A DNA stretch of 54,476 nucleotides from a virus. The notes under the pieces are model-generated. The model was not told where the DNA came from, did no database searches, and saw only the letters and a list, made by a program, of their open reading frames with translations. Shown here piece after piece: positions 26,340-29,382 of this stretch. Within the stretch, counting starts at the first letter, position 1, and each line of letters opens with the position of its first letter. The translations under genes and the position numbers were made by a program. The stretch covers positions 1 to 54,476 of IMG/VR virus record IMGVR_UViG_3300030450_002076; one strand, given 5' to 3'.

Positions 26340-26612
26340 ATGAGTAAATTAATGGCAATAGTAAAGAAACTTCAAGCTACGTATGTTACAAGAATGTTAA
26401 AGGCTCCTACTAAAGGTAGTGACGCTTGGAACTTTGGAATTAAGTCAGCTACTAAGAGTGAGCTACGTAAAGCATATATGACTGACTTACGTAACATAGT
26501 TGAAGTAGCAGTACAGAATAATGATCAAGATGTTATAGATTTCTGTAAAGGTTGTGTAGAAGATGATGAGAGTGTTGAGGACTTACAAGCACAAATTAAA
26601 GGAGCTAAGTAG
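26340..26612 (+). CDS. First early-arm protein, unknown
   Basis: The product is 90 aa. The N-terminal half is basic (MSKLMAIVKKLQATYVTRML), with an ATKSELRKAY helix in the middle. The C-terminal part is acidic (GCVEDDESVEDLQAQ). AAGGAG precedes the ATG. It is the first protein gene of the plus-strand arm and is followed directly by an intrinsic terminator, so it may be expressed alone and early. Small early phage proteins often disable host functions, but no target is visible here. Confidence 0.7.
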   Translation: MSKLMAIVKKLQATYVTRMLKAPTKGSDAWNFGIKSATKSELRKAYMTDLRNIVEVAVQNNDQDVIDFCKGCVEDDESVEDLQAQIKGAK

Positions 26613-26629
26613 AAATACTTAGTTCTTTT
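26603..26629 (+). terminator. Intrinsic terminator overlapping the stop codon
   Basis: AGCTAAGTA and TACTTAGTT pair over 9 bp (one wobble) around a GAAA tetraloop, followed by CTTTT. The stem includes the TAG stop of the 90-aa gene, so termination and translation are tightly linked. Confidence 0.6.
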
Positions 26630-26743
26630 AGTTAATAACAGTTAGTTGTTGATATGTACAAGTGACTATGAATGTAGACCACAGTACACACACATCATGC
26701 ACGAGTATATATATACCAACTTATACCACACTTAGAAGGAGTG

Positions 26744-26920
26744 ATGATGATTAAGAAAACTATATATAAACACAGTATCAGAGAGTTGATAGGTAGTAAT
26801 AACCCTATGTATATGATAGGTGGTTATTTAGTAATAGTATTACATGCAGGGTTAATGGCAAGTACATTTGTTACAGTAAGATATTGTTTAGAGGTATGCT
26901 TCTCAGTCTTCAAGCCTTAG
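26744..26920 (+). CDS. Small membrane protein
   Basis: The product is 58 aa from ATGATG at 26744 (the second ATG is also possible). AGAAGGAG lies just upstream. It starts with a basic segment (KKTIYKHSIRE). The middle is hydrophobic (YMIGGYLVIVLHAGLMAS), and a second hydrophobic stretch contains two Cys residues (YCLEVCFSVF). One or two membrane spans are likely. No family is recognised. Small early membrane proteins may interfere with the host envelope or with a second phage entering. Confidence 0.55.
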   Translation: MMIKKTIYKHSIRELIGSNNPMYMIGGYLVIVLHAGLMASTFVTVRYCLEVCFSVFKP

Positions 26921-26950
26921 TAACAGATTTACTGCTTCTACCCTGAAGTG

Positions 26951-27021
26951 ACCTCGGGACTAGGTTGTAGAGTTATGAACTACCGAGGGTGTCAGTGTGC
27001 TGGCATAATCTAGTCCTACCA
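26951..27021 (+). ncRNA. Candidate pseudoknotted RNA with tRNA-like CCA end
   Basis: GGACTAG (26957-26963) pairs with CTAGTCC (27010-27016). CCTCGG (26952-26957) pairs with CCGAGG (26983-26988), which lies inside that loop, giving a pseudoknot or two alternative folds. A third hairpin is TGTCAG-TGTG-CTGGCA. Read one base out, the outer stem becomes 7 bp followed by A and CCA, like a tRNA acceptor, but no T-arm fits. It is probably a structured RNA, not a functional tRNA. Confidence 0.45.
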
Positions 27022-27030
27022 TTTAAAGAC

Positions 27031-27101
27031 TATGTAAGTGAATAAATTATCAAGATATTGGCAGTCATTATGACGTAAGAATTAACCAAGCCACTTATAT
27101 A
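27031..27101 (+). ncRNA. Candidate structured RNA module
   Basis: TATGTAAGTG (27031-27040) pairs with CACTTATATA (27092-27101) over 10 bp with one wobble. Inside, TTGG/CCAA closes a region with a GTCA-TTA-TGAC hairpin. It lies directly between the pseudoknot candidate and the tRNA, so the three RNAs may be cut from one transcript. Confidence 0.45.
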
Positions 27102-27118
27102 GCAAATAAAGTATCAAT

Positions 27119-27193
27119 AGCGGAGACAAGCCTGGGTAGGCTAGCCTGGCTCATAACCAGGAAGCATTGTTAGTTCGAGTCTAACCTCCGCAA
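27119..27193 (+). tRNA. tRNA(CAT), initiator-like
   Basis: The anticodon arm is CCTGG-CTCATAA-CCAGG with anticodon CAT at 27152-27154. The T-arm is GTTAG-TTCGAGT-CTAAC. Acceptor pairs 2-7 are GCGGAG/CTCCGC. Bases 1 and 72 are both A and do not pair, a mismatch that is the hallmark of bacterial initiator tRNA. The D-loop AGCCTGGGTAG and the CCGCAAC 3' end also look like tRNA-fMet. The D-stem is AGCC/GGCT. The CCA is not encoded (CTA follows). Position 8 is A and the 29-41 pair is T-A, both atypical. Confidence 0.8.
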
Positions 27194-27216
27194 CTAAAAT
27201 AAGAAGGAGAAGTATA

Positions 27217-27360
27217 ATGTGGGATATAAATGTAGGTATAGAGCTAATGTTAATGATGTTAGCAATTCCAGTAGGTATACTAGTACTATCATACTTAATA
27301 GTTAGTTTGTTAGTAGTTGTAGAAGATTATAGAATAAAGAGACAAGAACGTAAATTTTAA
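27217..27360 (+). CDS. Small single-span membrane protein
   Basis: The product is 47 aa (MWDINVGIELMLMMLAIPV...). Residues ~7-36 are strongly hydrophobic, one long membrane helix, followed by an acidic-basic tail (EDYRIKRQERKF). AAGGAG lies just upstream. The gene starts 24 bases after the tRNA, so it may share its transcript. Topology is N-out or N-in with a cytoplasmic basic tail. No family is recognised. Confidence 0.6.
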   Translation: MWDINVGIELMLMMLAIPVGILVLSYLIVSLLVVVEDYRIKRQERKF

Positions 27361-27380
27361 CTAATTAAGGAGGACACACA

Positions 27381-27521
27381 ATGTCAAATGTATTATTAGA
27401 TATTGATTGGGGTAAAGCAAAGAAGTATTTAACGAAATATGACCTTGAAGACATTCGGAGTCATAATCGTTGTAGTATTAAAACTCTTGAAGTATTAGAT
27501 AGAGTTTATAGGAAATTGTAG
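27381..27521 (+). CDS. Small hypothetical early protein
   Basis: The product is 46 aa (MSNVLLDIDWGKAKKYLTKY...), soluble, mixed charge and helical. AAGGAGG precedes the ATG at 27381, spaced 20 bases after the previous gene. No motif is visible. It is the last coding region before the 740-base noncoding stretch. Confidence 0.6.
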   Translation: MSNVLLDIDWGKAKKYLTKYDLEDIRSHNRCSIKTLEVLDRVYRKL

Positions 27522-28260
27522 CAATACAATCGGCAGTATCATGTCGTTAGGATAAGCATAGCAATATGCCCAAAGCTATATGTTATACGAGTAACATTGG
27601 CGCCAGCAATGGTCCACAGATACAAGCCTCTATGCGTACGATCTCGAAGGCAAAGAGATTGTGGTGTCACTAAGATGGTAATTAGTGTGAGTATGGTAAC
27701 ATACAATAAGATAAGGGGTAGGAATTTAGTCTGAGTGTGAGAGCGAGGGCGTGTTCCAGTATTATGGTTAATCCTTTAGTGATAAAGGGCGACACCAGAA
27801 ATACCATAGTTTATAATATCTCAGTTATAAATTGTAGTTGTAAGCGTAGTATTTACTATCTTAATAGGATAGCAAGCTACTCCGTGAGCGACTTATGACA
27901 TGTGCCGTTATCGATTAACAAAAAAGATAACTAGGGGTTAGTAGCCTCATGAAAAACAGCCACGGCGATTAGGAGCAAAGGGTTCTAGTGCTTAATTCTC
28001 TTGAAATACCAGAGAGCATACATAATCTCAAGTTATGTGTGTGTTGTGACAAAAGTACTGTAAGGGTGGGCACATTCTTATAGATATAAGTAGTCGCTGA
28101 GATAACCTAATCGATAAGAGTGATAGTCTATAACTATTGAACCTGCTAGGATACTATTCGCAAGGGTAGTGGATAAGGACAAAACCAACCTGAGGGGAGG
28201 AACATAGTCCGAAAGTCTTAGCTAATAGAGTATAATCTCAACTCTACTAATTTTCACACA
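27522..28260 (+). ncRNA. Candidate large ornate noncoding RNA
   Basis: No frame stays open here. Many local stems can be seen. They include GCATA-GCAA-TATGC (27556-27569), TGTTAT/GTAACA, CATTG/CAATG, ATCTC/GAGAT, CACTAA/TTAGTG, GTATG-GTAA-CATAC (27691-27704), ATTATGGT/ACCATAGT enclosing CCTTTA-GTGA-TAAAGG (27761-27810), GTAG(CTATC/GATAG)CTAC, GTTATC/GATAAC, CATACATAA/TTATGTGTG (28017-28041), CTTAT-AGAT-ATAAG, ACTATTC-GCAA-GGGTAGT (28153-28170) and TAGAGT/ACTCTA. Four have GNRA tetraloops. Size, density and nearness to a tRNA recall the GOLLD/ROOL class of large phage RNAs, or a tandem set of smaller RNAs. Confidence 0.65.
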
Positions 28261-28275
28261 AATTTTGGAGGTATT

Positions 28276-28734
28276 ATGAGTAAAGTAATATTATGTGATG
28301 TAGATGGTACAATAGCCCTTATGATGGGTAAAAGAACACCATTTGAATATATTAAGGCTGATCAAGATGAGCCTAATATGCCAGTTATTAATGCAGTTAA
28401 ACAACTAGCTGAAATTAATAAATATGATATAGTATTTTTATCAGCCAGAGAGAATGTAACATTTGCTACTGGTAGAAGTAAATACGATAATGCATATGAT
28501 CTAACAAAAGATTGGATTATAAGGCATGTATATGATAGACAAGCAGAACCTCTTGATATCAACCTTATATTAAGACAAAAAGGTGATTGGAGAACTGATT
28601 GGGTAGTAAAGTATGAGATTTATAGAAAGAATGCCTGGGATGTTGCATATGTATTTGATGACAGAGATCAGGTAGTTAAAATGTGGAGAGATATAGGTTT
28701 AACCTGTTTTCAGGTAGCCAATGGTAATTTCTAG
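28276..28734 (+). CDS. Polynucleotide kinase-type 3'-phosphatase (HAD family)
   Basis: The product is 152 aa. HAD motif I is DVDGT (D8, D10), motif II is LSAR (S56), motif III includes K112, and motif IV is FDDRDQ (127-132). The RQKGDWRTDW and DDRDQVVKMWRDIGLTCFQV parts match the 3'-phosphatase domain of T4 polynucleotide kinase, which removes 3' phosphates from nicked RNA or DNA. The kinase half is absent. TTTTGGAGG precedes the ATG. Its place between two noncoding RNA regions suggests RNA-end repair or processing. Confidence 0.8.
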   Translation: MSKVILCDVDGTIALMMGKRTPFEYIKADQDEPNMPVINAVKQLAEINKYDIVFLSARENVTFATGRSKYDNAYDLTKDWIIRHVYDRQAEPLDINLILRQKGDWRTDWVVKYEIYRKNAWDVAYVFDDRDQVVKMWRDIGLTCFQVANGNF

Positions 28735-28760
28735 ACTTAAGCTCAACGTGCATGGGCAAT

Positions 28761-28993
28761 GTGGAGAGTATAATAGGATGATTACCTTGCGCCTCAATAA
28801 TAACAGTAGTTATACTCACTATCCACGGGGGACGACATAGCTGACCACTTAACAGGCTCGAAAGTAACAGATGGTTCGCCCCAAAGAATTATATGTGATT
28901 AGCGTCACATTGATAGTTAACCTTATGGACCGATTTAACGGGAATTGATGACGTCTATACATTCCGTCTGCATTCTATGTGATAAGGTTTAAC
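28761..28993 (+). ncRNA. Candidate structured RNA region
   Basis: Stems seen include GTGGA/TCCAC plus GAGTATAA/TTATACTC (28761-28826), GGGG/CCCC with CGA/TCG (28827-28882), ATGTGA-TTAGCG-TCACAT (28893-28910) and an 11-bp GTTAACCTTAT arm with one bulge (28916-28926 with 28982-28993). This last arm encloses ACG-G-GAAT/ATTCCGT. No frame is open. It follows the 3'-phosphatase gene and is not an intrinsic terminator, since no T-run follows the stems. Confidence 0.55.
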
Positions 28994-29027
28994 AGGGTAG
29001 ATAAAAAATAAAAGAAATAAAGCTTAG

Positions 29028-29151
29028 GGCTGTTACGTATAATCCGAAGCCAAAGAGTATTTTAAATAATATTTGTAGTAATACAAGCTGTAATCGCAGA
29101 CACTCACAGAGAATTTATAATGATTTCTGCTGCGGTTAAGGTGAATTACAG
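29028..29151 (+). ncRNA. Candidate structured RNA module with GNRA hairpin
   Basis: GGCT/AGCC (29028-29051) and TTGTA-GTAA-TACAA with a GNRA tetraloop (29073-29086) precede CTGTAAT/ATTACAG (29088-29094 with 29145-29151). That stem is stacked on CGCAG/CTGCG (29095-29099 with 29130-29134). Together they make a long interrupted arm of 12 bp. No frame is open in the region. Confidence 0.5.
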
Positions 29152-29168
29152 TTATGTAATATATATAT

Positions 29169-29202
29169 TGTGTGGATATACCCTTCATTACTACACCACA
29201 CA
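29169..29202 (+). promoter_or_regulatory. Hairpin in the leader of the 51-aa gene
   Basis: TGTGTGG and CCACACA pair over 7 bp around a 20-base loop. The stem ends 12 bases before the GGAGG of the next gene. It may shield or expose that site, but the sequence does not prove it. Confidence 0.4.
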
Positions 29203-29226
29203 CTAGTTTATATAAGGAGGAGCGCA

Positions 29227-29382
29227 ATGATAGCGATAGGAAATGATGAACCATGTCCTTTCTGTAAAGGTAAAGATAAATTTGTAAATGATCCAGATGT
29301 TAATTTTATAGATCATTTGATGAAGGAACACCCAGCAGAGATGACTGAGTATCTATTTAAAGGAAAGAACATCGGTTTATAA
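29227..29382 (+). CDS. Small zinc-finger-like protein (C2H2 type)
   Basis: The product is 51 aa from the ATG at 29227, chosen for the GGAGG upstream. A longer frame from 29170 has no site. Ligands fit CPFC (C10, C13) and H30/H35 (IDHLMKEH), a CxxC-16-HxxxxH zinc finger. Such small proteins may bind nucleic acid or host proteins. It follows three RNA regions and precedes a fourth. No family name can be given. Confidence 0.65.
   Translation: MIAIGNDEPCPFCKGKDKFVNDPDVNFIDHLMKEHPAEMTEYLFKGKNIGL

What the first reader, a model, noticed from the sequence alone, without database searches (positions are those of the whole stretch)
27522..28260. A ~740-nt noncoding stretch that looks like a large ornate RNA or tandem RNA array
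No frame is open, yet about 15 hairpins of 5-9 bp can be drawn by eye, four with GNRA tetraloops (27556-27569, 27691-27704, 27773-27788, 28153-28170), one nested (ATTATGGT/ACCATAGT) and one of 9 bp (28017-28041). Random AT-rich DNA rarely gives so many closed GNRA hairpins. A tRNA lies ~330 bp upstream and a 3'-phosphatase gene follows. Large ornate RNAs such as GOLLD and ROOL are known from phages near tRNAs, but I cannot say whether this is one of them or a new class.
Basis: partly seen in the sequence, partly recalled or inferred. Interest (0 to 1): 0.82.

Follow-up and report, generated by a model that had tools for sequence, protein, structure and literature searches.

The report
Divergent GOLLD nanocage RNA in phage
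The non-coding stretch is a phage GOLLD RNA, a known class of very large structured RNA that assembles into hollow RNA-only cages; this one belongs to a divergent branch that the standard Rfam cut-off misses.

Summary
With the usual Rfam cut-off nothing is found. With E-values listed, the whole GOLLD model (RF02032, 1-416) matches window 27837-28244, + strand, at 137 bits, E=1.8e-37, against a gathering score of 150. Related virus contigs carry the same RNA, and several exceed the cut-off. The first ~310 nt (27528-27836) are the GOLLD 5' domain: 27 of 63 pairs show compensatory changes. A loop-to-strand pairing there (27536-27540 with 27619-27623) covaries across distant GOLLDs. In the 3' domain 50 of 86 pairs are compensated. 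So this is one ~718-nt RNA, not a tandem array. It lies near a tRNA-Met and before a PNKP-type phosphatase gene. What is unusual: the branch has one P21 arm (loop GGCA) instead of the two self-kissing arms that join the half-cages in the solved structure; other GOLLDs also show this. Some close relatives lack the RNA and the phosphatase together. Expression, cage formation and cargo are inferred from published GOLLDs, not shown here. New member of a known kind.

The parts
27528..28245 (+). GOLLD RNA gene, ~718 nt (ends set by conservation among relatives, not by transcript mapping)
   Evidence: GOLLD model match, alignments A1-A3; conservation begins at 27527-27528 and ends after the terminal hairpin
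27528..27836 (+). 5' domain (the cap of the half-shell in the solved GOLLD)
   Evidence: 12-sequence alignment, 27 of 63 pairs compensated, 97.5% of cells paired
27531..27546 (+). first hairpin CGGCA-GUAUCA-UGUCG, followed by UUAG-AUAA; shared with distant GOLLDs
27536..27540 (+). GUAUC of the first loop, pairs with GAUAC 27619-27623 (within one chain or between chains not decided)
   Evidence: covarying pairing GUAUC/GAUAC, GUCUC/GAGAC, GCAUU/AAUGC, GUUUA/UAAAC
27619..27623 (+). GAUAC, partner of 27536-27540, followed by AAGC
27556..27569 (+). GNRA (GCAA) hairpin
   Evidence: 4 of 5 pairs compensated (helix 2)
27669..27688 (+). hairpin CACUAA / UUAGUG, loop GAUGGUAA
   Evidence: 5 of 6 pairs compensated (helix 5)
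27691..27704 (+). GNRA (GUAA) hairpin
   Evidence: helix 6
27772..27789 (+). GNRA (GUGA) hairpin inside nested helices
   Evidence: helices 8-10
27837..28245 (+). 3' domain (the part that Rfam models; ring of the half-shell)
   Evidence: cmscan 137 bits, E=1.8e-37, model 1-416; 50 of 86 pairs compensated
27900..27965 (+). variable linker, disordered inside the cage in the solved GOLLD; no tRNA in it here
   Evidence: position from the model alignment; no tRNA by ARAGORN
28017..28041 (+). 9-bp hairpin (P19/P20, numbering provisional)
   Evidence: helix 7; weakest helix, 77% of cells paired
28058..28083 (+). single P21 arm, 11 bp, apical loop GGCA; the other P21 arm of the model is missing
   Evidence: 8 of 11 pairs compensated (helix 9); gap in the model alignment; same in relatives
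28117..28129 (+). AGA (28117-28119) and UCU (28127-28129): the L22 to J17/22 pseudoknot of the solved GOLLD
   Evidence: 11 of 11 sequences can pair; nearly invariant, so little covariation (helix 10)
28152..28171 (+). GNRA (GCAA) hairpin before GUGGAUAAG
   Evidence: helix 13
28227..28245 (+). terminal hairpin (P27) with the hallmark loop UAAUCUCA
   Evidence: 4 of 5 pairs compensated (helix 16)
28276..28734 (+). HAD_PNKP phosphatase gene directly downstream; often, not always, next to the RNA in relatives
   Evidence: Pfam PF25109 E=8e-38; tblastn in relatives
27119..27194 (+). tRNA-Met(CAT) upstream

Best explanation
It is a GOLLD RNA of a double-stranded DNA phage, transcribed on the + strand, about 718 nt. 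Shown by sequence comparison: it has the two GOLLD domains, a 5' domain (27528-27836) and a 3' domain (27837-28245) with a ~66-nt variable linker in the 3' domain, and both domains are kept by compensatory base changes. Inferred from the solved GOLLD (PMC12286853): the 5' domains form caps and the 3' domains form rings, many copies of the same RNA assemble into a hollow cage, and the linkers hang inside. In this branch the two half-cages would be held by one self-kissing P21 loop (GGCA) per chain instead of two. Most likely use, inferred and weak: an RNA compartment made late in infection that holds or sequesters a part of the translation machinery (tRNA or ribosome). Confidence by step: GOLLD membership 0.97; cage formation about 0.75; cargo from translation about 0.25.
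For: Full-length match to RF02032, E=1.8e-37 and 8.2e-40; the 14 control genomes gave none. Relatives with the same 5' motif: all that are not cut by a contig end have the GOLLD 3' domain ~300 nt downstream, and eight of those contigs, some of them near copies of each other, are over the curated cut-off. Covariation in the 5' domain, the 3' domain and in a loop-strand pairing shared with distant GOLLDs, all far above slid and shuffled controls. Shared start element with other GOLLDs. Phage gene context and tRNA-Met nearby, as for GOLLD env-38 (PMC12286853).
Against: The score is below Rfam's curated cut-off (137 against 150). One P21 arm of the model is missing. The L20 to J13/15 kissing contact could not be identified. 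No transcript, assembly or cargo data exist for this phage; a promoter scan gave no more than chance and no terminator. A GOLLD RNA of an L. brevis prophage was dispensable for phage production, as cited in PMC7567579.
Confidence: 0.95

Rival explanations
1. A new class of large ornate RNA that only resembles GOLLD in its 3' half.
For: The 5' domain has no profile match among ~90 other GOLLD loci beyond one weak hit, and Rfam models only the 3' part.
Against: The 5' domain starts with the same element as other GOLLDs, and its first-loop pairing covaries with the same geometry in distant GOLLDs. Weak full-length profile hits to other GOLLDs exist (L076, E=6e-11). The 3' domain match is full length.
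Confidence: 0.03
2. A tandem array of several small RNAs.
For: About 15 hairpins in a row.
Against: Helices that join distant parts, such as helix 4 of the 5' domain and P13, P17 and P23 of the 3' domain, are compensated; the order and spacing are kept in all relatives.
Confidence: 0.01
3. A decayed, non-functional GOLLD remnant.
For: Score below cut-off; one P21 arm missing; relatives without the RNA exist.
Against: All named pairs of the window's 3' domain are standard and the 5' helices are intact; the missing arm is missing in the whole branch, which keeps compensatory changes.
Confidence: 0.02
4. Untranslated leader region of the phosphatase gene, with structure that acts only in cis.
For: It lies directly before the gene's ribosome-binding site; the gene follows in many relatives.
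Against: The RNA also occurs without that gene (no tblastn match in L084, L132, L134, L138) and amid tRNA and tmRNA genes in other GOLLD loci.
Confidence: 0.02

Closest known systems
GOLLD RNA (Rfam RF02032); solved example GOLLD env-38, homo-14-mer nanocage (PMC12286853)
   Same: 3' domain matches over its whole length; terminal UAAUCUCA hairpin; GUGGAUAAG after a hairpin; L22 to J17/22 pseudoknot possible; separate structured 5' domain; variable linker; phage genome; Met-tRNA upstream.
   Different: ~718 nt instead of 833; 5' domain ~310 instead of 420 nt and hardly recognisable by sequence profile; one P21 arm (GGCA loop) instead of P21a and P21b; score below the Rfam cut-off; no tRNA in the linker; assembly not tested.
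ROOL RNA (nanocage, homo-octamer)
   Same: Large phage RNA near tRNAs; may work alike.
   Different: No Rfam match at E<=5; sequence and secondary structure are of another kind.
OLE RNA; group I and II introns
   Same: Large structured RNAs of bacteria or phages.
   Different: No Rfam match at E<=5.

Membership tests
GOLLD (RF02032) | Match of the conserved 3' region to the family model | tested here: met
   Model 1-416 at 27837-28244, 137 bits, E=1.8e-37; below the curated 150 bits, but relatives of the same branch score up to 176
GOLLD (RF02032) | 3' region helices kept by covariation | tested here: met
   86 pairs, 94.7% of cells paired, 50 pairs with change on both sides against 24 in shuffles and 6-11 when slid
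GOLLD (RF02032) | Structured, less conserved 5' region directly upstream | tested here: met
   27 of 63 pairs compensated, 97.5% paired; first-loop pairing shared with other GOLLDs
GOLLD (RF02032) | L22 to J17/22 pseudoknot | tested here: inconclusive
   AGA/UCU can pair in all 11 distinct sequences, but is almost invariant within the branch
GOLLD (RF02032) | Encoded in phage or prophage, often near tRNAs | tested here: met
   Terminase, portal, endolysin, head proteins in the window; tRNA-Met 330 bp upstream
GOLLD, variable feature (not defining) | Two P21 arms (L21a, L21b) | tested here: not met
   Only one arm, loop GGCA; also single in L033 and L028 types, which score 280 and 256 bits, so it does not exclude membership
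GOLLD (RF02032) | L20 to J13/15 intermolecular kissing (bridge B7) | tested here: inconclusive
   L20 and J13/15 could not be placed with confidence without the published figure; a UGAG/CUCA match in the window is not kept in L084 and L136 (read by eye)
GOLLD (RF02032) | Assembles into a 14-mer cage; transcribed at lysis | not testable with these tools
   Needs experiment
ROOL, OLE, group I/II introns (Rfam) | Match to the family model | tested here: not met
   No match at E<=5 in 26500-29300, both strands

The most novel reading that the evidence does not exclude
This branch makes GOLLD cages whose two halves are joined by one self-kissing loop per chain (GGCA, P21b-like) instead of two, around a smaller cap domain, so that the cage may open more easily or have another number of subunits; the RNA and a PNKP-type phosphatase travel together as an optional module of this phage group.
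Probability: 0.35. Interest if true: 0.5.

Novelty: new member of a known kind. Interest (0 to 1): 0.36.

Why it matters
GOLLD RNAs are among the few natural RNAs known to form cages without protein, and their function is unknown. A divergent branch with a reduced set of contacts between half-cages gives a natural mutant series for asking which contacts the cage needs. It also shows that the Rfam cut-off loses true GOLLDs. Close relatives with and without the RNA give a natural comparison for function.

Tried and rejected
Rfam at gathering scores: nothing in the window, which would have wrongly suggested a new class. blastn in 50,697 phage records: no match. Synteny through the phosphatase gene: the first 14 of 26 contigs checked carry no GOLLD at the cut-off. 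Search of bacterial genome contigs for the 5' motif: none, so no host or prophage clue. Nearest terminase in named phages only 25% identical, from unrelated hosts. The L20 to J13/15 kissing contact: a 4-bp match (UGAG/CUCA) in the window fails in L084 and L136; dropped. Promoter and terminator scan: no more than chance.

Full report
OBSERVATION. The box 27522-28260 holds no reading frame over 55 aa. Four GNRA hairpins with stems of 5 bp or more are present as described; shuffles give 0.21 on average and none of 2000 reaches four; 2 of 292 windows of equal length in this genome do. The stretch folds at z = -4.5 (20 shuffles).

IDENTITY. cmscan with curated cut-offs finds nothing in the window. 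With E-values shown, GOLLD (RF02032) matches 27837-28244 over model positions 1-416, 137 bits, E=1.8e-37; the curated cut-off is 150 bits. A separate search of the record gives the same single place at E=8.2e-40 and none in 14 control genomes. A pattern from the conserved 3' end found 103 virus contigs. Six of them match the window's RNA closely, at 72-83% identity, five of them with the same 5' domain; the neighbouring phage genes also match, and those five pass the curated cut-off with 167-176 bits.

THE 5' DOMAIN. Conservation begins at 27527-27528. A 19-nt motif of this start occurs in 14 virus contigs. All but two, which are cut by contig ends, have the GOLLD 3' domain about 300 nt downstream, further in L132, which has an insert. 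In a 12-sequence alignment the consensus structure has 63 pairs; 27 have changes on both sides that keep the pair, 97.5% of cells are paired, against 12 such pairs in shuffles and 2-7 when one strand is slid. The structure was derived from the same sequences, so the slid control flatters it somewhat; the number of compensated pairs is nevertheless large. A sequence profile of this domain finds no clear match in the other ~90 GOLLD loci, and their 5' regions fall into several sequence groups. Even so, other GOLLDs start with the same element, CGGC-loop-GUCGUUAG-AUAA followed by a GNRA hairpin.

A COVARYING LONG-RANGE PAIRING. The loop of the first hairpin (GUAUC, 27536-27540) is complementary to GAUAC at 27619-27623. 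In L141 and L150 it reads GUCUC/GAGAC, in L151 GCAUU/AAUGC, in L030, L044, L050, L066 and L076 GUUUA/UAAAC, in L109 and L149 GUAUC/GAUAU, always 85-109 nt downstream and followed by AA. Formal count: 100% of cells paired, 3 of these 5 pairs with changes on both sides; for the hairpin and this pairing together, no slid version exceeds 44% paired. I chose the rows and put them in register by hand, and a 5-bp match with G-U allowed is common in 140 nt, so the weight lies in the constant place and flank. This ties the 5' domain to GOLLD as a whole. Whether it is a pseudoknot within one chain or a contact between chains is not decided. The parts of the structure paper that I read do not name it.

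THE 3' DOMAIN. With helices drawn on the window and counted in 11 distinct relatives, 94.7% of cells pair and 50 of 86 pairs are compensated (24 in shuffles, 6-11 slid). P13, P17, P20, P22, P23, P24 and P27 hold well; the 28017-28041 hairpin is the weakest (77% of cells). Helix names follow Rfam order and the text of PMC12286853 and are provisional. Where the model and env-38 have two P21 arms, the window has one, 28058-28083, 11 bp with loop GGCA; 8 of its 11 pairs are compensated. Other GOLLDs that score far above the cut-off (L033, L028) also seem to have one arm, while L043, L077 and L085 have two, the second with a GGCA loop. The window has therefore probably kept P21b (bridge B9) and lost P21a (bridge B8); this homology is inferred from the loop.

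CONTEXT. The record is a 54,476-base virus contig with terminase, portal, head protein and endolysin on the - strand and replication genes on the + strand. tRNA-Met lies 330 bp upstream; in L135 a tRNA-Met ends about 12 nt before the RNA. The next gene is a PNKP-type phosphatase (PF25109, E=8e-38), present behind the RNA in L046, L047, L116, L129, L133, L135, L136, L147 and L148, without a match in L084, L132, L134 and L138. Relatives L144 and L146 keep the flanking elements but have neither the RNA nor the phosphatase between them, so the module comes and goes.

MECHANISM. From PMC12286853: GOLLD env-38 forms a closed 14-mer of 380 A, 5' domains as caps, 3' domains as rings, linkers inside; expression rises during lysis; ribosomes were pulled down with GOLLD; function unknown. 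PMC7567579 cites that an L. brevis GOLLD was dispensable for phage production. I take it as most likely that the window's RNA forms a similar cage with fewer contacts between halves, and as a weak guess that its cargo belongs to the translation machinery. Nothing here shows expression, assembly or cargo.

VERDICT. A divergent member of a known RNA class. Interest is moderate: the class is striking and its function open, but membership is clear and the differences are those of a lineage.

Noticed in passing
window 27025-27105: An ~80-nt non-coding element with an 11-bp closing stem, 96-97% identical in L144-L148 and 86% in L132, although protein genes there are much less alike; directly behind a tRNA in L144-L148 (and just before the GOLLD in L147/L148), before the tRNA in the window. 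No Rfam match.
   Followed up: partly
window 28752-28895: Conserved non-coding element of ~140 nt (core CGGGGGACGACAU...AACAGAUGGUUCGCCCC), 73-77% identical in L132 and L134, where it sits just before a ribosome-binding site; here it has no gene behind it. Low folding z-score.
   Followed up: partly
window 28914-29226: Conserved non-coding stretch of ~300 nt in L132, L134, L138, L144, L146, in swapped order relative to the 28752-28895 element; ends in a UGUGUGG/CCACACA inverted repeat before the ribosome-binding site of a small zinc-ribbon-like gene at 29227.
   Followed up: partly
L144, L145, L146 (record of L144: 52,245 bases): Close relatives of this phage without a GOLLD match and without the neighbouring phosphatase: a natural comparison for the effect of the module.
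   Followed up: partly
L141:1335-2070: A still more divergent GOLLD that nhmmer finds with this branch's profile (E=3e-93) but the RF02032 genome search missed.
   Followed up: no
window 26501-26711: Strong local folding (z about -4) at the end of ORF 26340-26612 and just behind it; not examined.
   Followed up: no
L133:7760-7836, L136:3313-3389: tRNA-like gene with an odd four-base anticodon call (tata), 79% identical to the window's tRNA-Met region.
   Followed up: no
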